Part shown: in pieces, positions 37,915 through 64,000 of the stretch | Numbering within the stretch: the first letter of the stretch is position 1 | Layout: every line of letters starts with the position of its first letter | NCBI RefSeq assembly: GCF_004123295.1 | Contig: NZ_SDMK01000001.1 | Span: forward strand, 1,240,001-1,304,000 | DNA: 64,000 nucleotides | Direction of reading: 5' to 3' | From: Silvibacterium dinghuense | Lineage (GTDB): Bacteria; Acidobacteriota; Terriglobia; Terriglobales; Acidobacteriaceae | Translations under genes and position numbers: made by a program | Notes under the pieces: model-generated | Seen by the model: the letters and a program-made list of their open reading frames with translations, nothing else | Databases searched by the model: none | What the model was told of the DNA's origin: nothing

Positions 37915-37931
37915 CCATGTGCAGCCTTCGT

Positions 37932-41414: not shown

Positions 41415-41566
41415 ACCCTCCCACCCAAGCAAAGCTTGGATGGGGCACCCGAAGCTCTTGACTCGTGACCAACGGGAGCGCCACGCGAAGCCCAGTGCCG
41501 TACGGCCAGTGTCGCGACCAACGGGAGAGGAGGCCCGAAGGCAAAGGGCCTGGACGGCCAGTCCTA
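41415..41566. repeat. Composite of dispersed repeats B and A
   Basis: A B-type hairpin (CCACCCAAGC-AAA-GCTTGGATGG, 41421-41443) is followed by two A-type copies: TCGTGACCAACGGGAGCG (41464-41481) to ACGGCCAGT, and TCGCGACCAACGGGAGAGG to CTGGACGGCCAGTCC. The array ends exactly on the ispF stop codon. Confidence 0.65.
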
Positions 41567-49248: not shown

Positions 49249-51177
49249 TTACGCAAAGTTCTTCACATACGTTGAGTAACGCTCATCGTAGATATCCTTG
49301 AGCGGAACCAGCGTATGCTGCACGCCGTTGCCGCCCTTGCTCTTGAAGCGGATCGAGTAGCGTTCGTTCGCCTCGGCCGGCTCGAACCAGATGCCTTCGC
49401 TGCGGATGTGCGGCATCGGGATGCCGTCCGGTCCGGCAGGACCGTTGCTCGCGTAGATCATGCCTGTTGTCAGGCCATCAGTCCCGAGCGTGACCGCCAG
49501 CACCAGCGGTCCGTACATCGCCGCCTGCACCGTCTTGTCATCATTCGCATAGTTGATGTGCAGTGTCAGAGGCAGCGTGACCTCGATCGCATCGCCCACC
49601 TTCCAGTCGTGATCGACAGTCACATAGCTTGAAGGCGTCATCGTCGCGGTGACGGGCGCTCCGTTCACGCGGATCGCCACATCCTTCGTCGCCCAGTACG
49701 GGATGCGGAACTTCAGCGCCGTGGCTTTCGAAGGCGCACCCGTGATCTTGAAGGTGATCTTCTCATCCTCAGGAAACTTCGAAGTCTGCTCGAGCTTGAA
49801 TCCGCGTTCCTTCCAATCGAGCTTCGAAGGCACGTAGAGATTCACGTACACCGAGCCGTCATCGTGGAAGTAGATCGAATCGTTCAGCTTTGCGTACTCC
49901 TCGCTGCCCGTGCCGGTGCAGCACCAGAAGGCGTCATACTGAGTGCCGAAAGTCTTGTACATGCCCGGCTGCAGCGGCACGTAGTACATCAGCATGCCGT
50001 TGCGGTCCTGCGTCCCTGCGCGGACGTTGAAGAGCAGCCGCTCGTAGTAGTCGAAGTGCGCCGCGTCCGGCTCCTGCCCGAAGAGATGCCGCGTCAGCTT
50101 CATCATGTTGTAGCTGCAGCAGCACTCCTGCGCAGCGGGGCCAAGCTGTGTCGAGATCTCATCCGGCTTCTGCCAGAACTCGCCGTTGCTGGTGCCGCCG
50201 GTACAGTACGCGTGATGCTCGGTGACGTCGCGATAGAAGTTCCGCACGATCTTGTTGTAACGCTCATCGCCGGTCAGCTCATAGCCGCGTGCCGCACCGA
50301 TGATCTTCGGAATATTCGTGTTCGAATGATTGCCGCCCAGCTCGTCCTTACCCTCGGCCAGCGGATCGAAAATCTTGTGGTGCTCGAAGCGGTAGCCCAG
50401 GTCGCGATACTTGGTCTTGCCTGTGATCGCATACAGGTTGAACGAGACCTCGTTCATGCCGCCGTGCTCCACCAGCAGCACCTTCTGCCACTCATCGTCC
50501 TTGAAGGTCGCAGAATAAGCAGCGGCCCAGTCGGCCATGCTCTCGGCCATCTGCAACGCCTGCTGGTTGCCGGTGTGCTCATACATATCCACCAGGCCGG
50601 CCATGATCTTGTGGTACGTGTAGAACGGCGCCCACACATGCTCGTGCGTGCGCAGCCGGTCATAGAACTTCTCCGGATACGCGCCAAGGTAGCCATTCTT
50701 CTCCTGCGTCTCAGCCAGGGTCGCTACCAGCGCGTTGGCCTTGCCGCGAATCTCTTCATCGCCCGTGCTTGCGTAGAGCAACGCACAGCCGGAGAGATAG
50801 TGGCCTACGTAGTGGCCGCGCAGTTCGCAGTCCGGAGCCTCCCATCCGCCCAGCGGTGTCGCGTCCGTCTCCAGGCCCGCCGTCACGCGGAAGTTATATG
50901 CGAGGCGATCATTCGGAATCGAGTAGAGGAAGCCGCGATTCAGCTCCATCATGTCCTTCCACTCGCTCGGCAGCAGGCGCACATCGGTCATCGGAAACGG
51001 CTGGGCCTTCCACTGCACCTTCTCGACCGACGACGCGATCAGGTCCTTCGTCGCCACATCCTGACCTGCAATCTTTGCAGCCTGTTGTGCGGTAGCAGAG
51101 CGCGCGAGCAATGCGGCGCCGCTTGCAGCGGCAGCACTGGTAAGGAATCCCCTGCGGGTGAAGCCCATCTTCGTCAT
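49249..51177 (-). CDS. Tat-exported GH127/GH146 (DUF1680) beta-L-arabinofuranosidase
   Basis: The 642-residue enzyme has a Tat-type signal (FTRRGFLTSAAAASGAALLA) and the DUF1680 alpha/alpha barrel. Expected catalytic residues are present: the acid/base Glu333 in TGGTSNGEFW, the zinc ligands Glu351 and a cysteine in QECCCSYNMMKLTRHLF, and the Cys419-Cys420 pair in FWCCTGTGSEEYAKL, one of which is the thiolate nucleophile of the family. The motif set is closer to GH146 than to GH127. These enzymes remove beta-L-arabinofuranose, including arabinose attached to hydroxyproline in extensins. ATG 51177 overlaps the stop of the S9 peptidase gene in an ATGA arrangement. Confidence 0.9.
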   Translation of the reverse strand: MTKMGFTRRGFLTSAAAASGAALLARSATAQQAAKIAGQDVATKDLIASSVEKVQWKAQPFPMTDVRLLPSEWKDMMELNRGFLYSIPNDRLAYNFRVTAGLETDATPLGGWEAPDCELRGHYVGHYLSGCALLYASTGDEEIRGKANALVATLAETQEKNGYLGAYPEKFYDRLRTHEHVWAPFYTYHKIMAGLVDMYEHTGNQQALQMAESMADWAAAYSATFKDDEWQKVLLVEHGGMNEVSFNLYAITGKTKYRDLGYRFEHHKIFDPLAEGKDELGGNHSNTNIPKIIGAARGYELTGDERYNKIVRNFYRDVTEHHAYCTGGTSNGEFWQKPDEISTQLGPAAQECCCSYNMMKLTRHLFGQEPDAAHFDYYERLLFNVRAGTQDRNGMLMYYVPLQPGMYKTFGTQYDAFWCCTGTGSEEYAKLNDSIYFHDDGSVYVNLYVPSKLDWKERGFKLEQTSKFPEDEKITFKITGAPSKATALKFRIPYWATKDVAIRVNGAPVTATMTPSSYVTVDHDWKVGDAIEVTLPLTLHINYANDDKTVQAAMYGPLVLAVTLGTDGLTTGMIYASNGPAGPDGIPMPHIRSEGIWFEPAEANERYSIRFKSKGGNGVQHTLVPLKDIYDERYSTYVKNFA

Positions 51178-53594
51178 CGTGTGTGATCCTTTGCTGGAGT
51201 CGCGTCTGTCGGAGCCGAAGACGCGGAAGTGTCGTTCCAATTCACAGTCTTTTCGTCGGTCAGCGAGCGGAGAAAGAAGTCCATCAGGCGATGCTGGCCG
51301 TACTCGCCGCCTGCGCCGTGGCCGCCGCCCGGCACATCGAGAAACTCGAAATCCTTGTTGGCCTTGATGAGCGCATTCGCTACCTGCATGGTAGTCGAGG
51401 GGTCCACGTTCGTGTCCATCTCGCCCATCACCAGCAACAGACGTCCCTGCAGGCGCCACGCATTGTCCACATTTGAGGACGCCGCATACTGCGGACCGAG
51501 CGGCCAGCCCATCCATTGCTCGTTCCACCAGATCTTGTCCATGCGGTTGTCGTGCGAACCGCTATTCGCGACCGCGGCCTTGTAGAACTCCGGATGAAAG
51601 AGCAGCGCCGCCAGCGCATTCTGCCCTCCGGCCGAAGTGCCGAAGATGCCCACGCGCGTGTCGTCGTACCAGGGAAACTGCTTCGCCGCGGCCTGGTGCC
51701 ACAGGATGCGATCCGGGAAGCCGCCGTCCTTCAGATTCTGGAAGATCACATCGTGGAAGGCCTTCGAGCGATTGTTCGTGCCCATGCCGTCAATCTGCGC
51801 GACGACAAAGCCCAGCTGCGTAAGCGGCTGCGAACGCGGCGAGAAGTTCTTCGGCACAAATGAGCCCTGCGGCCCGGCATAGATATCTTCCACCACCGGA
51901 TACTTCTTCTTCGCATCGAAGTTCGCCGGCTTCCAGATCAAGCCCCAGATATCCGTCTTGCCATCGCGCCCTTTTGCGACAAAAACCTCGGGAGCAACCC
52001 AGCCCGCAGCCTTGAGCGCGGTCAGATCGCCCTTGGCCAACGTCGTCACCAGGCTGCCGTCGCTGGTCTTGCGCAGGTCAAGCTCGGGCGCAAGATCCAC
52101 GCGCGACCACAGGTCGGTGTAGTACTGGCCATCTTCGGAATAGGCAAGCTGATGATTTGCAGGCTCCATCGTAGACGCGCCCGCAGTTACCGGCTCCATG
52201 CCTGTGCCATCAAACTTGATGCGATAACCTTGCGTGAAGTACGGGTCAATTTTAGGATCGACACCGCTGGCCTCGAAGTAAATCTCGCGATTCTTCTCAT
52301 CCACATAATTCACGCCGCGCACCACCCAGTCGCCATGCGTGACCTGGTTCTCCAATTGTCCGGTGCGGCCGTTATAGAGATACAGGTGCGCCCATCCATC
52401 ACGCTCCGAGAGCCACAGAATTTCGTGGCCGTCGTTCATGTCGTGCCGGTAGAACTTACCCGTGCCTTCAGCCTCAGGATTCAGCTCCGTGTACTCGATG
52501 AAGGTTTTGCTCGTCTCATCGATCACGCGCCGTACGCCGCCCGTCTTCGCATCCACGGCAAGCACGTCCAACCGCTGATGCCCGCGCTGGTTGTAAACGA
52601 AGGTGAACTCCGAGCTGTCCTTGCGCCACTCGAAGCTGTTCAACTCGAAAGGGTTCGGAAAAAGATCATCGGCGATGACAATTTCGCCCTTCGTCGCAGG
52701 ATCGAAGAGCACCGGCTGATCGCGATCGAGCACATCGCCCGGCTTCGCATAGAAGTGTTCCGACGCAATCGGCTGCAGCTGGCTCTCGGGTGACGACTCC
52801 ACGTAATGCACCATGCGCCGGTATCCCGGCCGCGTGCGGATGGCCAGCAGATGCTTCGAATCCGGCGACCACTCAAGCGAGCTGCGCTGGTAGTAGTCGC
52901 CCTCGCTGCCATCCCAGCTCAATGGCACTGCCGGCTTCTTGTCACCCACGGCGCGAATAAAGACGTTGAAGTTCTGGATCGTCGCTTCCCACTTGCTGTC
53001 CGGGGAAATTTCCCCCTTATTCGCATCATTTCCGTCGAACGAAGGCGCACGCGACCAGTCGAACGGCTCACGCGGATGTCCATCCTGCTTGCAATCGTAA
53101 TCAGCGAGCGTGCAGCTCCAGCGTCCCCGTTTGGTGAAGAAGCTGAACTTCGCGCCACCATCCTCGAAGCGCAGGTCTGGCAGCGTCAACTCTTCCGCCT
53201 TCACCGGTTCAGGTAAACCTTTGCTGATCGAGGCCGCAATCTTTGCATTCTCGAGCGCCGTCTGTTGTCCGGTCGCAGCATCGACCAGGATGTACTTGTG
53301 CTGCGTCCCATCCGACTCCTGAAACCAGAGCTTCTCTGCATTCGTACCTGCGGGGCCGTCGATCCACTCGGCCTGCGCGGGCAACAGCCCCGCCGCCTTG
53401 CGATACACCACATTGATGCCCAGCGCATGCTCAAAGTCCGCACGCGTCACCGCAGGCGCGGACAGGGACGGGCCTGCAGCCACTTTCTCCGCAGCAGTCT
53501 TTTCTTTTGCGGGCTGCGCGGCAAGGGATGAAGCCAGCGCCGAGGACAGGACAAGTCCGGCAAGCAAACGGGAGTCAAAGCAGCAACGGAACAC
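51174..53594 (-). CDS. Secreted S9 family dipeptidyl-peptidase-like serine peptidase
   Basis: The 806-residue protein has a signal peptide ([17 protein letters not shown]), a DPP4-like beta propeller ([56 protein letters not shown]) and an alpha/beta-hydrolase domain with nucleophile Ser in [13 protein letters not shown] (about residue 650), Asp in [11 protein letters not shown] and His in [11 protein letters not shown]4-type enzymes cut X-Pro dipeptides. GTG 53594 with GGAG 7 nt upstream is preferred over TTG 53609, which lacks a ribosome site. It is translationally coupled to the arabinofuranosidase, which suggests a joint attack on a proline- or hydroxyproline-rich glycoprotein. Confidence 0.88.
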
Positions 53595-53672
53595 CGGCAA
53601 TCTCCGCAAGGAATCAAAAATACAATTTCGTGTACGTCGAGTGGACTACACTTTCACACGGTTGTCAAAGCG

Positions 53673-53704
53673 AAAAAAATGCCGGCGCGTTCGCTGCGCC
53701 GGCA
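53673..53704 (-). terminator. Intrinsic terminator after the DUF5695-like gene
   Basis: On the minus strand TGCCGGCGC-N7-GCGCCGGCA is followed by seven Ts. It separates the GH27/DUF5695-like unit from the S9/arabinofuranosidase unit, which therefore needs its own promoter in 53595-53672. Confidence 0.85.
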
Positions 53705-53786
53705 AATCAAAGGAGAGCAAGGAGGAAATTGTTCAGAATGCTGGAAACTTCGTGTCTTGATTTCAAGACATGAGGCAGCACCCTGT

Positions 53787-56561
53787 TTACTGCTGCCGCA
53801 GCTCGACGGTCGTCTCACCTCTGCCCAGAGCAATCACCGATGCGCCGCCATCCTTACCGGAACTGCCTGCAAGCGTCCAGGTATGACCACCCACCGTCGC
53901 CTCGTACCGCAGACGCGCCGACTTCACCGCATCTGTCGCCGCAGCCAGGTGCACACGCACGGTCTCGCGCTTCGTGTCATAGTCCACAGATGCAATCTGT
54001 CCCGCATCGAGCGTGATCCATAAGCCCGCAGGCGCAAGAAAGACGCGCTTGCGCGAGGAGTCGAGCACGGTCACATGCAGCGTGTCGCCATGCTCGATAA
54101 GATTGCCGCCGAAACACAGCCATCCCATCGCATCATTGTGCGCCACATAAACGCCCGTATTCAGCGCATGGCCCAGCAGGTTCGGACCATAGTCGCCCGA
54201 GTAAGGATCGAAGGCCATGCGATCCGGGAACGAGTGGAACGCCGCCGAGGCAAAGCCTTCCTGGTTGATGTTGCTCAGCGGTCCCATCACGCCGCCGTAG
54301 CCCACGCGCAGCAGATAGAGATCATCCGGATGTGTGCGATATTCCGCCAGCAGCGGAATTGCATTCAGCCCCGATCCGTAGTGATGCAGCTGCCGCTCCA
54401 CGCGTGGATACTTACCGCCATAGAGAAAATCCCAATAGCGTCGCGCGCTGCCGTTGTAGCCCCAGCTCGGAATCGTCGGATCGTACGCGAGGATGGCGTT
54501 CAGCGTAACCTCGGCCTTGTCCTTGTCGCCGAAGTAGTTCGTCCAGTCATAGACCTCTTCCTGACCGGTCGAATCCCACGCCATCTCGCTGCCGAAGGGA
54601 TACGCTTCATCCTTCCAGATACCAGCGCGTTCACGCATCATCGCTTCAAGCTTCGTTGCCTTGACCGTCCACTGTGCGTCCTGCAGGCCTTCGTGCTTCA
54701 AATCCTCGAGCAGCCGCAAAAAAACAGTGCCCTCCATCAGCCCGAAGCGCAGATAGTACGGAGCCTGCGTCTGCATCGCGATCGTCGTCTCATACGCCTG
54801 GTCGAGATACCACGACCACGGCTTCTCCGCCGCAAGACCGTTCGTGTTGCGCGCAATGCGATACAGCGACCAGTACGCCGCTACCACATGCGGATAGTTG
54901 AAGGTGCGGCCTACATCCTCCGCGCCTTCTTTATTCCAGCTTGTCCAGCTTTTCCAGTTGATGTCCTTGTCGTACTGAAAATTCGGCATCGCGTCGGGCT
55001 GATAGAAGAACAGACTCTTGTGCACGCCATACTTGTGCTCGCCTTCTGCGACCTGCAAGTGCCCCCACACCGTCTGATTCACGAACGCTTCGAGCTTTGC
55101 AACTTCGTCTTTATTCGGCTCCAGATATTCCTTCATCGCCGAAGCCAGCCATGCGCCCGATCCGCCTTCATCGCTCAGGCCCGCAATCCACACGCGCGGC
55201 TCCTGCGTCACCTGCTTGTGCGCTTCGTCGTCATAGCTGATGACCGAAGGCCCGCGATGGAAGGGATCTTTCTTGTCGTCGAACCACTGCTCGTTGAACA
55301 GGAAGTGCCCGAGATCCGCCAGCGTCTCGCGCTCCGGCTTGATGGTGCGATAGCCAATCGTCTGCACCGTGCCGTCGGCGTAGGTAATGGTAAGCCGCGA
55401 GCGGCCCCACGTCTTACCCTCGAGCGTGTATGCATGCAGCCCGCTCTTGAGCCTGCCGTCATCATGAATCGCAATCGCGCCCTCCGGCTCGACCGTCATC
55501 ACCTTCACCGGCTTGTCGTAGCGCAGGAAGAGCTTCGCGTCGATATCCTCGGGCAGGATGTAGCCCGGCACGCCCACGGCCACCGGTCGCCGATGTGCGG
55601 CCAGCGTCGATTCGATCTGCCGCAGCCCCGGCGCGACGATAAAACGTACACCCACGGTTACAGATTTCCCCGGAGCCAGCATCTGCTCCGTCGGAGTGTT
55701 CCACTCCTGCGCGCCATGCCACTCCGTATCGGCATAGGCCTTGGAGTTCACCATCCAATCGTAGGAGCCTTCAAACGTCGTCCAGTGGCCCTCAGGATCA
55801 TTGCCCAACTCACCCAGCCCGGTCTTGCGATCGCGCTTGTCCATGATCGGCTTCCACGCCTCGAGCGGCGTGTGGCCATCGGGCACCACCAGCAGTACCG
55901 GCCCTGTACCCTTCAGCGGAGACACCTGCACGTAGCCCGCATCCTCACCGATGTACGGGTCATAGAACGAACACGCACCATACGCTTGCTCCAGCGTGCG
56001 CGTGTTGATCATGTTGTTGAAGACCATGGCCATGCCGATGCCGCCCAGCTCGAGCGGCTGCGAGCCCTTGTTGGTCAGCGTAAAGTGCAGCGCCACATCG
56101 CCGTTCTCGACAGCCCACGTCCGCACCACGCCGAGCGGTGTGCCTTCAGGGAATGACGAGCTCACGTCCGCTGAAAACGTCTTCTCATTCGAGCTGAGAA
56201 CCTTCACCTGTTCACGATGGAACGCGGTCGAGACCGTCGTCCAGTCGCTCGCACCCTGCACGCGGAAGCGCAGGTCGAGATCACCGAGATGATAGAAGGT
56301 ATCGGCAGAGCGTTCCTTCAGCAGATCGCCGGGCGTGTAATCCCACGCAGGCGCGGACTGCGGAGACAACTGTGCCACCGTGCCCGAGTACGACAACAGC
56401 TTCACTGTCAGCGAAGACGACGTCAACGTGACACGGTCGCTCGCGAACATCGGCCCCGGCGGCGGAGGCGCAGGTTTATGTTGTGCATGAGCGAGGACAG
56501 ACGTGGCAGCCAGCACGAGTACGGCGCTGGCGTGAGTAACAGATCGGCGGGAAGGAATCAT
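53787..56561 (-). CDS. Large secreted DUF5695-like putative glycosidase
   Basis: The 924-residue protein has a signal peptide (THASAVLVLAATSVLAHAQ), then an N-terminal beta-sandwich part (VTLTSSSLTVKLLSYSG, DYTPGDLLKERSADTFYHLG), and from about residue 470 an alpha/alpha-toroid-like part (AAYWSLYRIARNTNGLA, YYLRFGLMEGTVFLRLLEDL, GSEMAWDSTGQEEVYDWTNY), ending in a beta domain. It resembles DUF5695-type proteins; the layout is that of a six-hairpin glycoside hydrolase with probable acidic residues in EMAWDSTGQEEVYDW. Start ATG 56561 lies 33 nt after the GH27 stop in one operon. Substrate unknown; context suggests arabino- or galacto-oligosaccharides of plant glycoprotein. Confidence 0.75.
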   Translation of the reverse strand: MIPSRRSVTHASAVLVLAATSVLAHAQHKPAPPPPGPMFASDRVTLTSSSLTVKLLSYSGTVAQLSPQSAPAWDYTPGDLLKERSADTFYHLGDLDLRFRVQGASDWTTVSTAFHREQVKVLSSNEKTFSADVSSSFPEGTPLGVVRTWAVENGDVALHFTLTNKGSQPLELGGIGMAMVFNNMINTRTLEQAYGACSFYDPYIGEDAGYVQVSPLKGTGPVLLVVPDGHTPLEAWKPIMDKRDRKTGLGELGNDPEGHWTTFEGSYDWMVNSKAYADTEWHGAQEWNTPTEQMLAPGKSVTVGVRFIVAPGLRQIESTLAAHRRPVAVGVPGYILPEDIDAKLFLRYDKPVKVMTVEPEGAIAIHDDGRLKSGLHAYTLEGKTWGRSRLTITYADGTVQTIGYRTIKPERETLADLGHFLFNEQWFDDKKDPFHRGPSVISYDDEAHKQVTQEPRVWIAGLSDEGGSGAWLASAMKEYLEPNKDEVAKLEAFVNQTVWGHLQVAEGEHKYGVHKSLFFYQPDAMPNFQYDKDINWKSWTSWNKEGAEDVGRTFNYPHVVAAYWSLYRIARNTNGLAAEKPWSWYLDQAYETTIAMQTQAPYYLRFGLMEGTVFLRLLEDLKHEGLQDAQWTVKATKLEAMMRERAGIWKDEAYPFGSEMAWDSTGQEEVYDWTNYFGDKDKAEVTLNAILAYDPTIPSWGYNGSARRYWDFLYGGKYPRVERQLHHYGSGLNAIPLLAEYRTHPDDLYLLRVGYGGVMGPLSNINQEGFASAAFHSFPDRMAFDPYSGDYGPNLLGHALNTGVYVAHNDAMGWLCFGGNLIEHGDTLHVTVLDSSRKRVFLAPAGLWITLDAGQIASVDYDTKRETVRVHLAAATDAVKSARLRYEATVGGHTWTLAGSSGKDGGASVIALGRGETTVELRQQ

Positions 56562-56594
56562 CACGTGCGTAACCCCGTAGTTCAGAACCAAAAT

Positions 56595-57785
56595 TCACTG
56601 ACGAACGCGCAGCATGACCACGCCATGCGGTGGCACTGCGGCATGCCAGGTGCCAGTCATCGCAGGCAGATCGCTGTGCGCCCACAGATCGCGTGCCTGC
56701 ACGGTACCGATGAAGCCCAGCCGCTCCAGCGGCACGTCGAGCTTCAGCGGCATTGTCCAGCGATTGAAGACCGCAACCGCCTTGCTGCCATCAGCCAGCG
56801 GCTTCGTCCATACTTCTAGCGGACCCTCGGTATACACGCGGTCACCCTGGTGTCCTGCCGCATCCTGATCGACCGCAATTACTTCGCGATTCAACAAAAT
56901 CGCCTTCGTCTCCGGCGTCATCTTCGTCAGGTCATTGCCCGCGAGCAGCGGCGCGGCCAGCAGCGACCACAGGCTCATATGCGTGCGATACTCCGCATCC
57001 TTCATGCCGCCGTTGCCGATCTCCAGCATGTCCGGATCGTTCCAGTGCCCAGGCCCCGCGAAGGGGCTCAAGCCCGCCTGGCCGAAGCCGATCTTCGCCA
57101 TCGAATCGTAGTTATCCTCGATATCGCCGGTAGTGCGCCACAGGTTGCCGCCCGCATCTCCACCCCAGCGCCACACCGCCTCCCAGCCATACTGGCAGAG
57201 GCTCAGCACGATGGGGCGGCCGGTTTTCTGGAGCGCGTCATGCATCTTCGTGTAGACCGCGAGCATCACTTCGCGCGACTTGTCATGATCGTGCCCGGCC
57301 TGCTGGGAGAGCTGTTCTGTATAGGAGCACAGGTCATATTTGAGATAGTCGATGCCCCACGCTGCGTAGGTGTTCGCATCGTCCTGCTCATGCCCATACG
57401 AGCCCGGATAGCCCGCGCAGGTCTTCATGCCCGGCGAAGAATAAATGCCGAGCTTCAGCCCCTTCGAATGCACGTAATCCGCCAGCGCCTTCATGTCGGG
57501 GAACTTCTTGTTGGGATGGATGTGCCCCTCGGCGTCGCGCTCGCCCTCCCACGTGTCGTCGATGTTCACGTACACGTAGCCTGCATCGCGCATACCGGTT
57601 GAGACCATCAGATCCGCCGTTTCGCGAATGGTCTTGTCGTCGACCTTATCGGCGAAGTGGTTCCAGCTGTTCCAACCCATCGGCGGCGTGGCCGCCAACG
57701 TGGTGTCGGCCGCGGCCGTGGCAGGCAGTGTCGTCATCACAGCCGAAGACAGAACAAAGGCAGAGAGCAGAGCTACAGCGCGCAT
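56595..57785 (-). CDS. Secreted GH27 alpha-galactosidase
   Basis: The 396-residue enzyme has a signal peptide (AVALLSAFVLSSAVMTTLPA) and the GH27 TIM barrel: PPMGWNSWNHF, YVNIDDTWEGERDAEGHIHP, the nucleophile Asp151 in DYLKYDLCSY, the acid/base Asp221 in WRTTGDIEDNY and GHWNDPDMLEIGNGG, followed by a short beta domain. GH27 removes terminal alpha-galactose; some members act on beta-L-arabinopyranose. In extensins serine carries alpha-galactose, so the neighbourhood fits. AAGGA precedes the ATG. It heads an operon with the DUF5695-like gene. Confidence 0.93.
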   Translation of the reverse strand: MRAVALLSAFVLSSAVMTTLPATAAADTTLAATPPMGWNSWNHFADKVDDKTIRETADLMVSTGMRDAGYVYVNIDDTWEGERDAEGHIHPNKKFPDMKALADYVHSKGLKLGIYSSPGMKTCAGYPGSYGHEQDDANTYAAWGIDYLKYDLCSYTEQLSQQAGHDHDKSREVMLAVYTKMHDALQKTGRPIVLSLCQYGWEAVWRWGGDAGGNLWRTTGDIEDNYDSMAKIGFGQAGLSPFAGPGHWNDPDMLEIGNGGMKDAEYRTHMSLWSLLAAPLLAGNDLTKMTPETKAILLNREVIAVDQDAAGHQGDRVYTEGPLEVWTKPLADGSKAVAVFNRWTMPLKLDVPLERLGFIGTVQARDLWAHSDLPAMTGTWHAAVPPHGVVMLRVRQ

Positions 57786-57814
57786 GCAGATCCTTACTCA
57801 AACAAAGAAATGGA

Positions 57815-57844
57815 AACCCGGAGGCAGCGAGATACCTCCGGGTT
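57815..57844 (-). terminator. Probable terminator of the hydroxyproline operon
   Basis: On the minus strand AACCCGGAGG-N10-CCTCCGGGTT is followed by TTCCATTTCTTT, a stem with a T-rich tail, 11 nt after the deaminase stop. Confidence 0.65.
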
Positions 57845-57855
57845 ATCGTTACAAA

Positions 57856-58770
57856 TTAAAAGCTCGAAAGCGGCTTCTCTTCGACCTTGGGGCGAGCGGC
57901 CACGGCAGTCTTGTAGGTCGCGGTCGCCTCTTCCAGCTCTGCGCCTGTGATGACCAGACGCGGCGCACGCACTACCTGCGAACCCACGCCAGCCTGCTCC
58001 TGCACCCACTTGATCAGCTGCACGAACTTGGGCACGGTATCCATGCGCAACAGCGGTAGGAACCACTTGTACAGCTCGAAGGCTTCCTTCGTCTTGCCCG
58101 CAATGGCGAGGTTGAACAGCTCGACCGACTCGGCCGGATACGCATTCACCAGGCCCGCAACCCAACCGGTCGCACCCGCTGCCACACCCTCGACCAGCGC
58201 GTCATCCACGCCGACAAAGATCTTGAGGCGATCGCCCAGCAGCGCCTTGATCCAGGAGACGCGCCGCACATCCGCGCTCGACTCCTTCACTGCGGCCAGG
58301 TTCGGATACTCCGCAGCCAGCTCGGCGATCTGATCGGGCAGGAAATCCGTCTTGTAGGCAATGGGATTGTTGTAGAGCATGCACGAGAGCTTGGTTGCTT
58401 TCAGGATCGCAACCACGTGCGCCTTCATCTCGCGCCAGTCGGAGGTGTACACATACGGCGGCAGCACCATCAGGCCCGAGCAGCCGGCAGCTTCGGCGTC
58501 CTTCGCCAGAGCAACAGCAGCCTCAGTCGAAAGCGCAGAGATCGCCGCAACCACAGGCTTGTCACCGGCGACGGAAACAGCCGTCTTCAGGATCGCAACC
58601 TTCTCCTCATGCGTCAGCGTCGCACCTTCGCCCAGCGAGCCGAGCATCACCAGGCCGGTGCAGCCGGTGCCCAGCAGCCATGCAGCGTGGCGCGCCAGAA
58701 ATTTATGGTCGACCTTCAGGTCTTCCGTGAAAGCAGTCGTCATTGCAGGCATTACGCCATACCAGTTCAT
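57856..58770 (-). CDS. DapA/NanA family lyase, probable 1-pyrroline-4-hydroxy-2-carboxylate deaminase
   Basis: The 304-residue protein is a dihydrodipicolinate-synthase-type TIM barrel with LGSLGEGATLTHEEK, CMLYNNPIAYKTDF (catalytic Tyr) and the Schiff-base Lys162 in LAAVKESSADVRR. In the oxidative hydroxyproline pathway a member of this family (LhpC/HypD type) deaminates the dehydrogenase product to alpha-ketoglutarate semialdehyde. The flanking genes supply the preceding steps, which is why this role is favoured over aldolase functions. Its ATG overlaps the stop of the flavoprotein gene by 4 nt. Confidence 0.85.
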   Translation of the reverse strand: MNWYGVMPAMTTAFTEDLKVDHKFLARHAAWLLGTGCTGLVMLGSLGEGATLTHEEKVAILKTAVSVAGDKPVVAAISALSTEAAVALAKDAEAAGCSGLMVLPPYVYTSDWREMKAHVVAILKATKLSCMLYNNPIAYKTDFLPDQIAELAAEYPNLAAVKESSADVRRVSWIKALLGDRLKIFVGVDDALVEGVAAGATGWVAGLVNAYPAESVELFNLAIAGKTKEAFELYKWFLPLLRMDTVPKFVQLIKWVQEQAGVGSQVVRAPRLVITGAELEEATATYKTAVAARPKVEEKPLSSF

Positions 58771-60095
58771 GCGTTCTCCTCAATCGAATCGTTCGAACAA
58801 AGTGCTCCCACGGGTGTGGGAAAAATCGGTTGCCGCACCGAGGCGTTCTTCCATCCGAAGACGACCTCCGCGGCCGGACCGCAGATGCGGCCCTGGCAGG
58901 GCCCCATGCCGCAGCGCGTTTGCAGCTTGGCCTCTGTCCAGCTATGGTGCCCGGCCAGGCTCGCTGTCTGCACATCCTCGCAACGGCAGAAGACCGTATC
59001 CGGCGCGGCCAGGGTGCGCAGTTCGGGCCGCAGCGCAAACGTGCGCTCCAGTCCCGCCGCAAACTTCCGTCCCGCCTCGGCACGCTTCTGCAGATGCGTC
59101 GTCGGCTGGCCAGCCGCCGCAAGACCAGCAATCTCACCCTCGGCCAGAGCGGCGTCAAGACCGCCGATACCCGTCGGCTCGCCCGCGCAGTAAATTCCCT
59201 GCTGCGATGTCTGCTGGTTCGCATCGACCTTCACAAAGTCACCGCGCAGCTCGCAGCCCAGCAGCGCAGCCAGTTCGGTGTTCGGCACCAGATGGAAGCC
59301 GCACGCGAGCATATCGCACGCGACTTCCCATGTCTTTTTGCCGTTGCTCAGCTTCACCGCGCGCAGCAGGCCACCTTCGCCGGCAATAGCCGCCATCGGC
59401 CACGTGCCTGCCTGATACGGCGTGCCGATCACACGCCCGCGATAGCCCGCGCCCTGCATCAGCTTCGATGGATTCGTCAGCATCGTCGCGCTGAAAGCCG
59501 CCAGCTTCCACGCCGGAGCCTGCTCGGCCATCGCGACCACCTTTGCGCCGTAGTCATGCAGATGCGCCGCAACCGCCAGCAACAGAGGGCCGGTACCGGC
59601 AACAACGACGCGCTTACCCGCGACCTCATAGCCGCCCTTCACCAGCGCCTGCAATCCGCCTGCGCCAAAGACACCCGGCAGCGTCCATCCCGGAAACGGC
59701 AGAAACCGCTCGCGCGCGCCCGTGGCAAGAATCAACTTGCCGTAGAGCACATGCAGCACAGCGCCATCTTCTTCCCGATAGGCCCGCAGCGTCGCACGAT
59801 CCGGTGCATCGATCACGCGGCAGCCGCTGGCCACGCGCACGCCAGCCGCAAGCATCTGCTCCACGGCGCGATCCCGCGTCACGCCATCAGCGTCGAACTT
59901 TCGCTGCGACGGCAGCCCCTGCCGCCAGATCTGTCCACCCGGTGCCGGGTTATCGTCGATGACCAGCACGCTGCGCCCACAACGTGAAGCAGCGGTAGCA
60001 GCAGCGATGCCTGCCGGCCCCGCGCCCACCACCACAACGTCCGCAATCTGCGTCAGAGGCTGAGGCTTGATGAACATGTTCAGCTCATCGCTCAT
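58767..60095 (-). CDS. FAD-dependent alpha subunit of D-hydroxyproline dehydrogenase (HcnB/LhpF type)
   Basis: The 442-residue flavoprotein has the dinucleotide motif VVVVGAGPAGIAAATAASRC, LILATGARERFLPFPGW, a second fold VVVAGTGPLLLAVAAHL and a C-terminal BFD-like iron-sulphur region with VFCRCEDVQT and CGMGPCQGRICGP. This is the large subunit of tripartite opine/amino-acid dehydrogenases (HcnABC, OoxA, LhpBEF). ATG 60095 overlaps the ferredoxin-like stop (ATGA) and has GGAG at good distance; ATG 60101 is an alternative. It forms a complex with the two preceding genes. Confidence 0.87.
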   Translation of the reverse strand: MSDELNMFIKPQPLTQIADVVVVGAGPAGIAAATAASRCGRSVLVIDDNPAPGGQIWRQGLPSQRKFDADGVTRDRAVEQMLAAGVRVASGCRVIDAPDRATLRAYREEDGAVLHVLYGKLILATGARERFLPFPGWTLPGVFGAGGLQALVKGGYEVAGKRVVVAGTGPLLLAVAAHLHDYGAKVVAMAEQAPAWKLAAFSATMLTNPSKLMQGAGYRGRVIGTPYQAGTWPMAAIAGEGGLLRAVKLSNGKKTWEVACDMLACGFHLVPNTELAALLGCELRGDFVKVDANQQTSQQGIYCAGEPTGIGGLDAALAEGEIAGLAAAGQPTTHLQKRAEAGRKFAAGLERTFALRPELRTLAAPDTVFCRCEDVQTASLAGHHSWTEAKLQTRCGMGPCQGRICGPAAEVVFGWKNASVRQPIFPTPVGALCSNDSIEENA

Positions 60096-60352
60096 CGCCA
60101 TGTCTCCCCCTGCTGCGTTTCGACAGACATGCCAGGCTGGCAGGCAAGCTGGCAGGTCTTCGTCTGTGGAACGCCGTTCACTACTGCGCGGCACTCCATG
60201 CAGATACCCATGCCGCAGAGCGCCGTCCGCGGTTCCCCACTCACCGAAGTGCGGCACACCGCACCGGCCAGCAACATCGCCGCGGCCACACGCGTGCCCG
60301 AAGGTACTTCAACGGCTTCGCCGTTGATCGTCAGCCTCACCGTCTCAGGCAT
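60092..60352 (-). CDS. Small 2Fe-2S subunit of D-hydroxyproline dehydrogenase (HcnA/LhpE type)
   Basis: The 86-residue protein has the Fer2_4 pattern: VRLTINGEAVEVPSGT, then TALCGMGICMECRAVVNGV with the cluster cysteines and KTCQLACQPGM. It starts 8 nt inside the end of the preceding oxidoreductase gene and overlaps the next gene by 4 nt, so all three subunits are translationally coupled. Confidence 0.88.
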   Translation of the reverse strand: MPETVRLTINGEAVEVPSGTRVAAAMLLAGAVCRTSVSGEPRTALCGMGICMECRAVVNGVPQTKTCQLACQPGMSVETQQGETWR

Positions 60353-61478
60353 GCTCCGTCTCCTTCTTCACAGCAAGACGCGCCGGAAGAAACGGCGTCA
60401 CATCCAGCGCCGAATGATTCCCCAGCAGCTGATCTACCAGCAGCCGCGCCGCGCCTGGAGCATTCGTGATGCCCAGCCCCTCGAAGCCCATTGCCAGCCA
60501 CAGTGAAGGATCATCCGTAATCGCCTCGGCAGGACCGATCAGCGGCAACTTATCGTCAGTAGAAGCGCGAAAGCCCGTCCACGCGCGGATTGCCGACAAT
60601 GCTGCGAGCTTCGGCATATATTTAATCGCCCGCTCCAGCATCAGGCGCAACATGCGTGGCTCCGCTGCAGGATCGACCTTTCCGAACTGCCGCGAGGAGC
60701 CGATCAGCATCTGCCCTGTCTGCCGCGGCTGTAGATTGAACGCCACCGACTCATCCGTGAGCTTATGTGCGCTCTTCAGATATCCAAGCTCCACGAGCTG
60801 ATGATGCGCAAACCCCGGATAGCGGTCGGTAATGAGCAGATGCCCCTTGCGCTTTTGTATCGGTAACTGTGGCAGTAGCGAAATATCCGCACCCGCTGCC
60901 AGCACAATGCGCTCGGCCTGCAGCTTTGCGCTGTTGGCCAGCACAACTTCACCCTTGCCTGCGGCCGCTGCGCGGCCCTGCACCAGCTTCGCTCCGTGAT
61001 GCTGCGCATCCGAGAGAAAATGCGCGGCTGCCGCAGGCGGATAGACCACCGCATCCTCCGGCACGCGCAGCCCACCGGCAAGACCGGGGCGCAGATTTGG
61101 CTCAACCGCAGCTACTGTCTTCGCGTCCAGCACCTCGCTCGCCACACCCGCTTTCTCATAGGTGGCGCGTTTGGCATGGACCTCCTTCATCTCTTCCTCG
61201 TCGGATGCGACCCACAATGTCCCGCGCGACTCGAACTCGATCGAAGCAGGCAGCGTCTCCCGCTCCTGCTGCCACAGCTCGCGCGAGAATGTCGTCAACG
61301 CAAGCTGCGCCGGGGAATCGTCCATCACGACAAGGTGCCCCATGCCCGCGGCTGTAATACCCGAGCCCGGCACCTTTTCTTCGATTACCGCCGTGCGCAG
61401 GCCGGCTCGCGCAGACTCCCGCGCAATCGCCGACCCCACAATTCCGGCCCCAACTATCACTACATCAAAAATTGCCAT
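60345..61478 (-). CDS. DAO-type FAD oxidoreductase, catalytic subunit of D-hydroxyproline dehydrogenase (LhpB type)
   Basis: The 377-residue protein starts FDVVIVGAGIVGSAIARESA (FAD-binding Rossmann motif), with GLAGGLRVPEDAVVYPP, RIVLAAGADISLLPQLP and the C-terminal LWLAMGFEGLGITNAPGAA of the D-amino-acid oxidase/glycine oxidase family. It is probably the substrate-oxidising subunit that converts cis-4-hydroxy-D-proline to the pyrroline. It follows the epimerase by 50 nt. Confidence 0.87.
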   Translation of the reverse strand: MAIFDVVIVGAGIVGSAIARESARAGLRTAVIEEKVPGSGITAAGMGHLVVMDDSPAQLALTTFSRELWQQERETLPASIEFESRGTLWVASDEEEMKEVHAKRATYEKAGVASEVLDAKTVAAVEPNLRPGLAGGLRVPEDAVVYPPAAAAHFLSDAQHHGAKLVQGRAAAAGKGEVVLANSAKLQAERIVLAAGADISLLPQLPIQKRKGHLLITDRYPGFAHHQLVELGYLKSAHKLTDESVAFNLQPRQTGQMLIGSSRQFGKVDPAAEPRMLRLMLERAIKYMPKLAALSAIRAWTGFRASTDDKLPLIGPAEAITDDPSLWLAMGFEGLGITNAPGAARLLVDQLLGNHSALDVTPFLPARLAVKKETEHA

Positions 61479-61528
61479 TTCTCTTTTATGTCAAAGATTG
61501 CAGCTTGAATTCCGTCGTATACCGCGAT

Positions 61529-62479
61529 CTAAAACAAAATCCCCTGTGCAAATGGATCGTCATCGGCAAAGATCAGCCTCGACTCAGCCGTAATCCACGC
61601 CCGCCCGCGAATGCTCGGGATCACCTGTTCGTCTTCCCCCTCGATCACCGCGCCCTGGAAGACTGTGCCCAGCACGCTCTCCTGCCGCCAGATGGCACCC
61701 GGCTTGAGCTTGCCGTCGGCATAAAGACAGGCCATCTTCGCGCTCGTCCCCGTACCGCATGGTGAGCGGTCGAAGGCCGCGCCCGGACACAGCACAAAGT
61801 TCCGTGATGAGTTCGCCGCATCGCCCGGTTCGGCAAACAACTCGATGTGGTCGATCTCACCACCGTCCTCGCCCGTAATACCCTGCTCGCGCAGCGCCGT
61901 GCGGATCGCCGTCGTCACCGCCATCAGCTGCTCGCGGTTCGAAGCCTTGATCTCGTAGGAATGATCACCGATGAGGAAAAACCAGTTTCCACCCCACGCG
62001 ATATCGCCCACGAAGCGTCCATATCCCGGCACGTCCACCGGCACCGCCGCGCGATAGCGCCGGCTCGGCACATTCTGCACCGTCACCGATCCATCCTCGT
62101 GCAGACAGGCCAGGACCGTACCCACCGGGGTCTCAATTCTGTGCGCGCCAGGCTTGATGCGCCCCAGGTGCGCCAGCGTCGTCACCAGTCCGATCGTGCC
62201 GTGTCCACACATACCCAGGTAACCCACGTCATTGAAATAGATCACCGCTGCGGTCGAGTCTGCGTGCTCAGGATCAAGCAAGAGCGCGCCCACCACCACC
62301 TCAGAACCGCGCGGCTCGCAGATCACACCGGAACGAAAGCCGTCATACTCCTCGCGAAAGCGCCGCAGCCGTTCTGCGAGCGGCCCACCGCCCAAATCAG
62401 GCCCCCCGTCCAGCACCACACGGGTGGGTTCGCCCTCTGTATGAGAGTCAACAACATGAACCATCTTTGGCAAAGCCAT
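61529..62479 (-). CDS. 4-hydroxyproline 2-epimerase (proline racemase family)
   Basis: The 316-residue enzyme has both catalytic cysteines of racemase/epimerase members: Cys91 in GMCGHGTIGLV and Cys241 in DRSPCGTGTSAKMA, which argues against the dehydratase branch, where the first cysteine is replaced. Other motifs are DSHTEGEPTRVV and WGGNWFFLIGD. It converts trans-4-hydroxy-L-proline to cis-4-hydroxy-D-proline, the entry step of oxidative hydroxyproline catabolism. It is the first gene of a five-gene minus-strand operon; TTAGGA lies about 9 nt before the ATG. Confidence 0.92.
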   Translation of the reverse strand: MALPKMVHVVDSHTEGEPTRVVLDGGPDLGGGPLAERLRRFREEYDGFRSGVICEPRGSEVVVGALLLDPEHADSTAAVIYFNDVGYLGMCGHGTIGLVTTLAHLGRIKPGAHRIETPVGTVLACLHEDGSVTVQNVPSRRYRAAVPVDVPGYGRFVGDIAWGGNWFFLIGDHSYEIKASNREQLMAVTTAIRTALREQGITGEDGGEIDHIELFAEPGDAANSSRNFVLCPGAAFDRSPCGTGTSAKMACLYADGKLKPGAIWRQESVLGTVFQGAVIEGEDEQVIPSIRGRAWITAESRLIFADDDPFAQGILF

Positions 62480-62575
62480 ATCGAGAATCCTAACTGAAAT
62501 TGTCTACGATTTTGAATACATTGTTGTGATAATTCTTCGTACCGAATATCGATGCGCGAGATCCCACACGAAATC
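62480..62575. promoter_or_regulatory. Divergent promoter region between the hydroxyproline operon and GH43
   Basis: This roughly 95-bp spacer must drive both directions. An AT-rich imperfect dyad AATTGTCTA...TGTGATAATT (62498-62534) lies in the middle and could bind a shared regulator; GATAAT (62528-62533) is a candidate plus-strand -10. No regulator gene is adjacent in the window. Confidence 0.4.
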
Positions 62576-64000
62576 ATGACCAGACGACCCATCCCGCTTC
62601 GCCCCGCGCTGCTTCCACTGGCCCTGGCTGCAACGCTTGCCAGCCCTCTTTCCGCTACGGCTCTCGGGCAGCAGGTGCCCGCACCGCAGCCAATCGAAAG
62701 CCGCGGAAACCCTATCCTTTCCGATGGCTCCTACTACTCCGCAGATCCGGCCCCGCTGGTCGCCGGCGACACGCTGTACATCCTGGCCGGCCGCGATGAG
62801 GCCCCTCCAAATGTGAATGATTTCATCATGAACGAGTGGCAGATCTTCTCTACCAAAGATGTGGCATCGGGCCATTGGCTTCATTACCCCGGCATCCTCA
62901 GGCCGCACGAGGTCTTCGCCTGGGCCGCGCCTGATCGCGCCTACGCCGGCCAGATCATCGAAGGGCCCGATCACCGCTTCTATCTTTATGCTCCGGTGCA
63001 AGAGGCCAACAGTACGAATGAAGACACCTTCGCCATCGGCGTCGCAGTATCGGACTCGCCGCTCGGCCCATGGAAGGATGCACATCCCTCGGGCCCCATC
63101 GTCAGCCAGTCCGTGCCCGAGCCCGATCACATCCAGAACATCGACCCGACCATCATGATCGACGACGATGGCCGCGTCTGGCTCTACTGGGGGACCTTCG
63201 GCCGCCTGCTCGGCATGGAGCTCAAGCCGGACATGATCACGCCCGCAGGCAAGGAATTCCCTGTTCATGGACTCACCGGCTTCTTCGAAGCGCCATGGAT
63301 CATGAAACGTAACCGTACCTATTACATGATCTACGCCGGCAACCAGGCAGGCCCGGATTCGCCCTGCACGCCGGCCGTCTATCACGCATGCATTGAATAC
63401 GGCACCGCGCCCGCGCCCACCGGCCCGTGGACCTGGCAGGGCGTCATCCTCGATCCCGTCTCCTCCACCACCTCGCACCCCGGCGCCATCGCCTTCAAAG
63501 GCCAGTGGTACCTCATCTATCACACGGCAGACGCCAAAGGAGGCGGCCATTTCCGCCGCAGCGTCGCCATCGACAAGATGCAGTGGGATGACACTGTCAC
63601 GCCACCACGCATCCTCAAGGTCATGCCCACGCATGCACCCTCGGCGCCGCCCGCGCCCAGCCGCAACCTCGCGCCCGCCGCGCATCCCAGCGCCTCGAAC
63701 GAACCGGTGCCGCTGCAATACTGGATCGCCGCCGTCAACGACGGCATCGTGCGCGAGAACCCGCTCCCGCCCGACATGTGGGCCACCTGGACGCCGCACA
63801 ATCCGCCGCAGCAATGGCTCCAGTACACCTGGGCCGCGCCCGTCACCCTCAACGGCAGCCGCATCGTCTTTTGGACCGATCACCCCGCCGGCGCGAACGA
63901 GGGCGTCGCTCCGCCGAAGGCCTGGCATCTCGAATACTGGCGCGATGGTGCATGGCATCCTGTTCCGCATCCCTCCGCCTACACGGCCGATCCCGGCCAC
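62576..64000 (+). CDS. Secreted GH43 family glycosidase, truncated by the right edge
   Basis: The frame is open from ATG 62576 to the window end (475 codons). A signal peptide (PALLPLALAATLASPLSATA) is followed by a five-bladed GH43 propeller: base Asp57 in SYYSADPAPLV, modulator Asp190 in NIDPTIMIDDDGRVWLYWG and acid Glu238 in GFFEAPWIMKRN. From about residue 380 a further beta domain begins (LQYTWAAPVTLNGSRIVFW, WHLEYWRDGAWHPVP), like the carbohydrate-binding or accessory domains of GH43 proteins. Activities in GH43 include alpha-L-arabinofuranosidase and beta-xylosidase; context favours arabinose. ATG 62552 in frame is an alternative start. It diverges from the hydroxyproline operon. Confidence 0.88.
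   Translation, partial: MTRRPIPLRPALLPLALAATLASPLSATALGQQVPAPQPIESRGNPILSDGSYYSADPAPLVAGDTLYILAGRDEAPPNVNDFIMNEWQIFSTKDVASGHWLHYPGILRPHEVFAWAAPDRAYAGQIIEGPDHRFYLYAPVQEANSTNEDTFAIGVAVSDSPLGPWKDAHPSGPIVSQSVPEPDHIQNIDPTIMIDDDGRVWLYWGTFGRLLGMELKPDMITPAGKEFPVHGLTGFFEAPWIMKRNRTYYMIYAGNQAGPDSPCTPAVYHACIEYGTAPAPTGPWTWQGVILDPVSSTTSHPGAIAFKGQWYLIYHTADAKGGGHFRRSVAIDKMQWDDTVTPPRILKVMPTHAPSAPPAPSRNLAPAAHPSASNEPVPLQYWIAAVNDGIVRENPLPPDMWATWTPHNPPQQWLQYTWAAPVTLNGSRIVFWTDHPAGANEGVAPPKAWHLEYWRDGAWHPVPHPSAYTADPGH

What the first reader, a model, noticed from the sequence alone, without database searches (positions are those of the whole stretch)
49249..64000. Candidate extensin / hydroxyproline-rich glycoprotein utilisation locus
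Within 15 kb lie a GH146/GH127 beta-L-arabinofuranosidase (the class that removes arabinose linked to hydroxyproline), a GH43 enzyme, a GH27 alpha-galactosidase (extensin serine carries alpha-galactose), a DPP4-like peptidase translationally coupled to the arabinofuranosidase, a large DUF5695-like putative glycosidase, and a full hydroxyproline oxidation operon. Each activity matches one bond or monomer of plant extensin. In Bifidobacterium and Xanthomonas, HypBA1/HypAA/HypBA2 gene sets attack the same glycans, but linkage to peptide cleavage and hydroxyproline catabolism in an acidobacterium is, to my knowledge, not described.
Basis: partly seen in the sequence, partly recalled or inferred. 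Interest (0 to 1): 0.85.

Follow-up and report, generated by a model that had tools for sequence, protein, structure and literature searches.

The report
Plant hydroxyproline-glycoprotein utilisation gene cluster
A soil bacterium carries, side by side, genes that look made to strip arabinose-type sugars from hydroxyproline-rich plant wall proteins, cut the bare protein and burn the hydroxyproline; varied versions of this set, often with an uncharacterised enzyme called DUF5695, recur in several bacterial phyla.

Summary
GH146-type arabinofuranosidase, DPP4-like peptidase, DUF5695, GH27 and a hydroxyproline (Hyp) operon lie on the minus strand; GH43 is divergent and runs past the window. The operon has a small 2Fe-2S gene but no semialdehyde dehydrogenase; the only match in this genome is on contig 2, beside a second DPP4-like peptidase.

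In 200 family genomes, 26 of 27 with DUF5695, 32 of 33 with the peptidase and 8 of 8 with the GH43 also hold the epimerase; within 25 kb, own genome excluded: 14 of 25, 21 of 31, 7 of 7. Order varies; nine flanking genes recur in 0 of 60 epimerase and 0 of 80 DUF5695 neighbourhoods. In named genomes 28 of 80 DUF5695 loci hold Hyp genes, in at least four phyla; two Mucilaginibacter loci add arabinose-catabolism genes.

DUF5695's predicted fold matches PL27, which acts on arabinogalactan proteins. Hydroxyproline-rich glycoproteins are well supported as substrate; extensin specifically is likely, not shown.

The parts
49249..51177 (-). GH146-type beta-L-arabinofuranosidase, 642 aa, twin-arginine-type signal (RRGFL at residue 8)
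   Evidence: PF07944 387 bits; best solved relative GH146 BT0349 chain 5opj 329 bits, 8k7x/8k7y 201-204 bits, GH127 chains 62-69 bits; E333, E351, C353, C419, C420 at the Zn/catalytic positions
51174..53609 (-). DPP4-like S9 peptidase, signal-peptide-like N-terminus, ATGA overlap with the arabinofuranosidase
   Evidence: Peptidase_S9 153 bits, DPPIV_N 127 bits; closest solved: dipeptidyl aminopeptidase IV 2d5l 139 bits; [19 protein letters not shown] motifs present
53680..53704 (-). terminator-like hairpin with T run between DUF5695 and the peptidase
   Evidence: 9 pairs, 8 GC, T run
53787..56591 (-). DUF5695 protein, 934 aa as called, signal-peptide-like N-terminus; predicted beta-sandwich plus alpha/alpha-barrel fold, PL27-like
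   Evidence: PF18951 1255 bits; model pLDDT 88, pTM 0.89; Foldseek best 5no8 E 1.8e-28; profile hit to the same chain E 1.2e-4
56595..57785 (-). GH27 alpha-galactosidase-like enzyme, signal-peptide-like N-terminus
   Evidence: PF16499 236 bits; closest solved alpha-galactosidase 1uas 352 bits, beta-L-arabinopyranosidase Abp 113 bits
57815..57844 (-). terminator-like hairpin between deaminase and GH27
   Evidence: 12 pairs
57856..58770 (-). [quoted passage not shown]
   Evidence: PF00701 183 bits; operon position as in SCO6289-6293 (PMC6608401, passages read)
58767..60095 (-). predicted D-hydroxyproline dehydrogenase alpha subunit
   Evidence: Pyr_redox_2 98 bits, soxA-like; start chosen at the overlap with the 2Fe-2S gene
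60092..60352 (-). predicted D-hydroxyproline dehydrogenase gamma subunit, 2Fe-2S, 86 aa
   Evidence: Fer2_4 72 bits; found in 45 of 60 neighbourhoods
60345..61478 (-). predicted D-hydroxyproline dehydrogenase beta subunit (DAO)
   Evidence: PF01266 214 bits
61529..62479 (-). predicted 4-hydroxyproline epimerase
   Evidence: NF010577 428 bits (cut-off 442), NF052296 427 (cut-off 450); the only Pro_racemase match in the genome
62552..64000 (+). GH43 enzyme (547 aa in all; ends at window-equivalent 64195), divergent from the epimerase
   Evidence: PF04616 114 bits; closest solved gly43N xylosidase/arabinofuranosidase 3qee 178 bits

Best explanation
This is a locus for feeding on hydroxyproline-rich plant glycoproteins, most likely extensin-type Hyp-arabinosides. 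Inferred sequence of events: exported glycosidases (GH43, DUF5695, GH27, GH146) strip side-chain sugars from Hyp (and perhaps Ser); the exported DPP4-like peptidase shortens the freed Pro/Hyp-rich peptides; Hyp or small Hyp peptides enter the cell; epimerase, three-subunit D-Hyp dehydrogenase and deaminase turn Hyp into 2-oxoglutarate semialdehyde, finished to 2-oxoglutarate by an aldehyde dehydrogenase encoded at a second locus. Shown here: presence of the genes, intact motifs, conserved co-occurrence with changed gene order. Inferred: every enzyme activity, the substrate, export and regulation.
For: Genome-wide co-occurrence in 200 family genomes: DUF5695 27, of which 26 with epimerase; peptidase 33, 32 with epimerase; GH43 8, all with epimerase; GH146 55, 41 with epimerase. 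Within 25 kb of the epimerase, own genome excluded: DUF5695 14 of 25, peptidase 21 of 31, GH43 7 of 7, GH146 16 of 40, against 0.33, 0.38, 0.08 and 0.49 expected for random placement. Order and strand vary, while nine window genes flanking the cluster are in 0 of 60 epimerase neighbourhoods, 0 of 11 longer stretches (30-54 kb) and 0 of 80 named DUF5695 loci. Cross-phylum: Hyp genes in 28 of 80 DUF5695 loci; in Mucilaginibacter sp. MD40 the Hyp enzymes are of other subfamilies (epimerase NF010578, 605 bits, cut-off 376; D-amino-acid-dehydrogenase-like oxidase) next to ribulokinase, AraD and AraA. Family neighbourhoods also hold GntR regulators, amino-acid permeases, DUF885 proteins, GH51, a second GH146-like enzyme and the aldehyde dehydrogenase. 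The genome's second locus has the aldehyde dehydrogenase, a second DPP4-like peptidase, DUF885, an M24 peptidase and a permease.
Against: No activity or expression data. Of 55 genomes with the GH146, 14 lack the epimerase, and GH146 enzymes also act on arabinan and AGP (PMC10850190, passages). GH27 is common (127 of 200). DUF5695 resembles a lyase for uronic-acid-containing AGP caps; extensin arabinosides hold no uronic acid (general knowledge). 52 of 80 DUF5695 loci do not meet the Hyp criterion within the flanks held (up to 10 kb a side; many contigs are short). Only 10 of 60 epimerase neighbourhoods hold DUF5695 within the up to 20 kb fetched: many relatives use Hyp without this set close by. 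42 of 68 epimerase genomes have no DUF5695 at all. AraA (PF02610) is absent from this genome, though a ribulokinase, an aldolase-II protein, a fucose-isomerase-type protein and an SSF symporter lie together on contig 1. Genomes are related, so the probabilities are too small.
Confidence: 0.7

Rival explanations
1. The substrate is mainly arabinogalactan protein. DUF5695 is a PL27-like lyase or relative that removes end caps, GH146/GH43/GH27 trim arabinose and alpha-galactose, and Hyp comes from the AGP backbone.
For: DUF5695 fold best match PL27 BACCELL_00875 (E 1.8e-28, TM 0.81 by target; first hit to another protein 2.4e-7) and profile hit E 1.2e-4; PL27 releases Rha from gum arabic by desaturating GlcA (PMC8377490, passages read). 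Bll3HypBA1 GH146 acts on AGP (PMC10850190, passages).
Against: No galactan-backbone, rhamnose or uronate gene was named among the neighbour representatives that were annotated (rarer neighbours were not annotated). Identity to PL27 is 15%; catalytic residues were not checked against the original paper, which is not held.
Confidence: 0.2
2. A general arabinan/pectin side-chain locus that happens to sit beside a Hyp operon used for free or collagen-derived hydroxyproline.
For: GH146 BT0349 belongs to an RG-I locus (PMC10850190, passages); 41 of 55 GH146 genomes have the epimerase but only 16 of 40 lie within 25 kb; in Streptomyces the Hyp regulator's regulon includes a collagenase (PMC6608401, passages).
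Against: Same gene families recur next to Hyp genes in changed orders and in other phyla; flanking genes do not; no collagenase family among the neighbours that were annotated.
Confidence: 0.08
3. Chance neighbourhood or inherited synteny without functional meaning.
For: Genomes compared are relatives, and the counts are not corrected for that.
Against: Random-placement expectation 0.08 to 0.49 against 7 to 21 observed; 0 of 60, 0 of 11 and 0 of 80 for nine flank genes; linkage state changes at least 14 times on the DUF5695 tree of 67 labelled rows; other Hyp enzyme subfamilies in Mucilaginibacter and Asticcacaulis.
Confidence: 0.02

Closest known systems
HypAA-HypBA2-HypBA1 sets of Bifidobacterium longum and Xanthomonas euvesicatoria (PMC6085000, PMC7263609, PMC10850190; passages read)
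   Same: GH43 plus GH127/GH146 arabinofuranosidases aimed at Hyp-arabinosides; a prolyl-oligopeptidase pseudogene beside the Xanthomonas genes; XeHypBA1, classed as GH146 in PMC10850190, prefers Ara-Hyp
   Different: No Hyp catabolism genes are mentioned in the passages read; those sets use GH121 (reported as found mostly in bifidobacteria and Xanthomonas, PMC7263609), whereas here DUF5695 is a frequent partner (GH121 was not searched for)
lhp/hyp L-hydroxyproline operons (Pseudomonas aeruginosa Lhp, Streptomyces SCO6289-6293; PMC6608401, passages read)
   Same: Epimerase, three-subunit D-Hyp dehydrogenase with small 2Fe-2S subunit, DHDPS-family deaminase
   Different: Aldehyde dehydrogenase is elsewhere; flanked by glycosidases, not a collagenase
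PL27 L-rhamnose-alpha-1,4-D-glucuronate lyase BACCELL_00875
   Same: Predicted fold of DUF5695; weak but sole significant profile match in the PDB
   Different: 15% identity, 934 residues against 694 in the chain, other gene company in these genomes; activity of DUF5695 unknown
Latescibacteria extensin prediction (PMC4454575, passages read)
   Same: GH127 proposed for arabinose release from extensin
   Different: Prediction from gene content; no gene cluster and no Hyp catabolism in the passages read

Membership tests
GH146 beta-L-arabinofuranosidase | Closer to GH146 than GH127 structures | tested here: met
   329 bits to 5opj, 201-204 to 8k7x/8k7y, 62-69 to GH127 chains
GH146 beta-L-arabinofuranosidase | Zn site Glu-Cys-Cys-Cys and acid/base Glu | tested here: met
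   E351, C353, C419, C420, E333; Zn ligand pattern from PMC10850190; acid/base assignment by alignment and recall
GH146 beta-L-arabinofuranosidase | Activity on Ara-Hyp | not testable with these tools
   needs enzyme assay
L-hydroxyproline catabolic operon (lhp type) | Epimerase, alpha-beta-gamma D-Hyp dehydrogenase, deaminase adjacent | tested here: met
   by domain and order; the epimerase is 14 and 23 bits under the two curated cut-offs
L-hydroxyproline catabolic operon (lhp type) | 2-oxoglutarate semialdehyde dehydrogenase in the same cluster | tested here: not met
   none found in the stretch; candidate on contig 2; an aldehyde dehydrogenase cluster is in 33 of 60 relatives' neighbourhoods (one representative named by Pfam)
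HypAA-HypBA2-HypBA1 system | GH43 orthologous to HypAA | not tested
   GH43 family met but no HypAA sequence at hand; subfamily unknown
HypAA-HypBA2-HypBA1 system | GH121 arabinobiosidase present | not tested
   no GH121 model or sequence was used
PL27 (for DUF5695) | Fold: beta-sandwich plus alpha/alpha barrel as in 5no8 | tested here: met
PL27 (for DUF5695) | Sequence homology to PL27 | tested here: inconclusive
   profile E 1.2e-4 for the whole chain, best single stretch i-Evalue 1.1; phmmer of the window protein did not list it up to E 10
PL27 (for DUF5695) | Catalytic residues and lyase activity | not testable with these tools
   primary paper not held; some shared residues in the alignment

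The most novel reading that the evidence does not exclude
DUF5695 is a new carbohydrate-active enzyme family, distantly related to PL27, whose job is removal of glycans from hydroxyproline, and it marks a cross-phylum 'eat the glycoprotein whole' strategy in which sugars, peptide and hydroxyproline are all used from one gene neighbourhood. It may fill the place that GH121 HypBA2 holds in bifidobacteria and Xanthomonas.
Probability: 0.45. Interest if true: 0.85.

Novelty: new variant of a known kind. Interest (0 to 1): 0.7.

Why it matters
Extensins and related glycoproteins are abundant, tough plant wall proteins, and how soil bacteria recycle their hydroxyproline carbon and nitrogen is poorly known (general knowledge). 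The gene company gives a testable function to DUF5695 (426 relatives found in one scan; in the library searched one paper, on fungal velvet regulators, holds the name) and a genomic marker for HRGP use in Acidobacteriota, Bacteroidota, Verrucomicrobiota and Alphaproteobacteria.

Tried and rejected
Chance neighbourhood: rejected by random-placement counts and the flank-gene control. That control was weak as first run: the 60 neighbourhoods reach about 14 kb downstream and 5 kb upstream of the epimerase, and most of the nine flank genes lie just beyond that in the window. It was therefore repeated on 11 longer stretches (30-54 kb, picked because they hold cluster genes) and on the 80 named DUF5695 loci, where three of the nine fall wholly or mostly inside the flank: 0 again. 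Whether the flank genes exist elsewhere in those genomes was not checked, and no unrelated glycosidase family was run as a control.

GH27 as evidence for Ser-linked galactose of extensin: weak. It is in 127 of 200 genomes and the match list was cut off, so no full distance count was possible; of 45 rows I picked by hand from the list, 9 lie within 25 kb of an epimerase (epimerase positions given for 15 genomes only). GH27 as beta-L-arabinopyranosidase: disfavoured by scores. Lack of L-arabinose use: AraA is absent and only one IlvD/Edd-type gene was found, but a ribulokinase with aldolase-II, fucose-isomerase-type and SSF genes was found, so the objection is no longer decisive. A first neighbour count of the 80 loci by my own ORF calling missed genes and was replaced by tblastn; the row D5695b also counts the main DUF5695 and is not used. 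The 794-aa neighbour gave only generic alpha/alpha-barrel matches.

Literature: all 10 searches used; in the listings I saw no paper joining hydroxyproline catabolism with HRGP glycosidases. Open-licence library only, so this absence is weak.
Full report
What is there. The window is bases 1240001-1304000 of contig 1 of a 5.1 Mb genome. From 49249 to 62479 the minus strand holds GH146-type arabinofuranosidase, DPP4-like peptidase, DUF5695, GH27 and a hydroxyproline set; a GH43 gene starts at 62552 on the plus strand and ends at window-equivalent 64195; beyond it lies a predicted outer-membrane protein with CarboxypepD_reg and OMP_b-brl_4 domains. The GH146 gene most likely begins at ATG 51177, overlapping the peptidase stop by ATGA. 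A small 2Fe-2S gene, not in the finding, sits between the two flavoprotein subunits, giving the beta-gamma-alpha-deaminase order described for Streptomyces SCO6289-6292 (PMC6608401, passages read). Terminator-like hairpins separate deaminase from GH27 and DUF5695 from the peptidase, so three transcription units plus GH43 are likely. The scan found 13 terminator-like sites against 9.1 expected in shuffles, so only these two strong ones are used; promoter-like sites did not exceed chance (3 against 3.9).

Enzyme identity. The arabinofuranosidase is nearer GH146 than GH127 (329 bits to 5opj; 62-69 bits to GH127 chains) and keeps the Zn-cysteine site (ligand pattern from PMC10850190, passages). 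It falls far below the aceric-acid-hydrolase model (96 of 950 bits). The peptidase is closest to bacterial DPP IV chains; dipeptidyl specificity was not tested. The GH27 is closest to alpha-galactosidases. GH43 is closest to xylosidase/arabinofuranosidases such as gly43N; HypAA itself could not be compared. The epimerase scores just under the curated cut-offs. N-termini of the peptidase, DUF5695, GH27 and GH43 look like signal peptides and that of GH146 like a twin-arginine signal by inspection; no predictor was run.

Missing step. In relatives an aldehyde dehydrogenase cluster recurs in 33 of 60 epimerase neighbourhoods. Its only match in this genome (61% identity) is on contig 2 at 298325-299887, near a second DPP4-like peptidase (55% identity), a DUF885 protein, an M24 peptidase and, about 10 kb on, an amino-acid permease. 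The pathway is therefore probably complete but split in two.

Conservation in the family. One protein search each over the same 200 genomes (drawn evenly from a larger group) gave epimerase 68 (E up to 1e-40), DUF5695 27 (1e-30), GH146 55 (1e-100), GH27 127 (1e-60), GH43 8 (1e-60), peptidase 33 (1e-120). Joint presence with the epimerase: 26, 41, 8 and 32 for DUF5695, GH146, GH43 and peptidase, against 9.2, 18.7, 2.7 and 11.2 expected. Within 25 kb, own genome excluded: 14 of 25, 16 of 40, 7 of 7 and 21 of 31. For DUF5695, 16 of those 25 pairs share a contig, so nine misses are on different contigs of often fragmented assemblies. A clear exception is G047, where DUF5695 and GH146 are adjacent to each other 2.3 Mb from the epimerase. 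Another is G030, which has DUF5695 and the peptidase without the epimerase, with an arabinose isomerase about 4 kb from DUF5695. Conversely 42 of 68 epimerase genomes lack DUF5695. The probabilities printed ignore relatedness and assume a 4.6 Mb genome.

Arrangement. Of the 70 listed epimerase places I fetched 60, leaving out the own genome's and the nine lowest-scoring others, seven of them partial matches; further stretches were fetched for 11 genomes, plus places in G047 and G177. Order and strand differ from genome to genome. In the 60 neighbourhoods epimerase was in 60, DAO 55, deaminase 54, alpha 48, 2Fe-2S 45, receptor 23, peptidase 15, DUF5695 10, GH27 9, GH146 8, GH43 3. Nine genes flanking the cluster in the window (five below, four above) were in 0 of the 60. 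Because those stretches are short, the control was repeated: 0 of 11 longer stretches (30-54 kb, chosen for holding cluster genes; there peptidase is in 10, GH146 in 10, DUF5695 in 8, GH43 in 7, GH27 in 4) and 0 of 80 named DUF5695 loci; all nine queries find themselves in the window. Other recurrent neighbours: GntR/FCD regulators, amino-acid permease, DUF885, GH31, sortilin-like proteins; single examples of GH51, GH127, a second GH146-like enzyme with DUF6805 and an M1 peptidase were named by Pfam.

Across phyla. A scan of named genomes with a DUF5695 alignment found 426 relatives; the best 80 were kept. In these, an epimerase or at least two Hyp genes lie within the flanks held in 28 of 80: Acidobacteriota 15 of 45, Bacteroidota 5 of 20, Verrucomicrobiota 3 of 6, Alphaproteobacteria 4 of 4, others 1 of 5 (phyla assigned by me from record titles). 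GH127/146 were in 31, the DPP4-like peptidase in 26, DUF885 in 17. Arabinose-catabolism genes were in 5 (L093, L132, L133, L162, L163). In Mucilaginibacter sp. MD40 (L133) the row reads deaminase, aldehyde dehydrogenase, epimerase, D-amino-acid-dehydrogenase-like oxidase, DUF885, DUF5695, a 203-aa gene, ribulokinase, AraD-type epimerase, a 466-aa gene with weak GH27 similarity, AraA. Its epimerase is of another subfamily (35% identity to the window's) over the curated cut-off (605 against 376 bits); the Asticcacaulis one (L157) is too (522 bits). On a DUF5695 tree the linked/unlinked state changes at least 14 times over 67 labelled rows, 29 of them linked (FastTree; unlinked counted only for loci of 16 kb or more). 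Repeated assembly from different parts, with arabinose genes joining in, points to a substrate that gives hydroxyproline and, at least there, arabinose.

DUF5695. The model is confident (pLDDT 88, pTM 0.89). The best Foldseek matches, some twenty orders of magnitude ahead of the next protein, are two entries of PL27 BACCELL_00875, and the family profile's only hit under E 0.001 in the PDB is the same chain (E 1.2e-4), with shared YNY, R-x-W-D, G-K and H-Y positions in that alignment. PL27 enzymes release rhamnose from gum arabic by beta-elimination (PMC8377490, passages read; the primary paper is not held). AGPs are also hydroxyproline-rich, so this fits an HRGP substrate but argues against a simple extensin-only reading. 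Hyp-arabinosides hold no uronic acid, so if they are the substrate DUF5695 must work by other chemistry than PL27.

Arabinose in this genome. AraA is absent (PF02610 rings in 26 of 200 family genomes and 5 of 14 controls). A ribulokinase over its cut-off (554 against 428 bits) lies on contig 1 near 37 kb with an aldolase-II protein, an SSF symporter and a protein with the fucose-isomerase C-terminal domain, which could serve L-arabinose with a non-AraA isomerase (inference).

Verdict. Hydroxyproline-rich glycoprotein use is well supported by comparison; extensin is the most economical substrate; AGP is the main rival. Known pieces in a new combination, plus an unassigned enzyme family with a testable role.

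Noticed in passing
L110:12743-15181 (17 of 80 DUF5695 loci in all, e.g. L104:4924-7332): About 794-aa protein with twin-arginine-like start, no Pfam family and no significant PDB sequence relative; predicted alpha/alpha-barrel, glycosidase-like fold. Possibly another unclassified glycosidase of this system.
   Followed up: partly
G000 contig 2, 293999-310771 (L086, L087): Second hydroxyproline-related locus in the same genome: DPP4-like peptidase, DUF885, aldehyde dehydrogenase, M24 peptidase, amino-acid permease.
   Followed up: partly
L066:3409-6603 and others: Second, divergent DUF5695 type (PF18951 190 bits) with weak F5/8 type C similarity next to the main DUF5695 in some Granulicella-like genomes.
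   Followed up: no
L153:4514-6157; cluster u2 of nine loci: About 545-aa protein, directly after DUF5695 in several Verrucomicrobiota loci, with weak, below-cut-off similarity to a zinc-metallopeptidase domain family (PF07737, 21 against 27 bits); possibly the peptidase of those loci.
   Followed up: no
G000 contig 1, about 31000-38500 (L171): Likely L-arabinose or related sugar locus with a fucose-isomerase-type protein in place of AraA.
   Followed up: partly
window 31732-33933: Protein with six-hairpin glycosidase-type domains (rhamnosidase, MGH1-like and GH65 C-terminal matches), not linked to the cluster in this work.
   Followed up: no
window 39469-41544: M14 zinc carboxypeptidase family protein, 8 kb from the cluster; found in 0 of 60 epimerase neighbourhoods and 0 of 80 DUF5695 loci.
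   Followed up: partly
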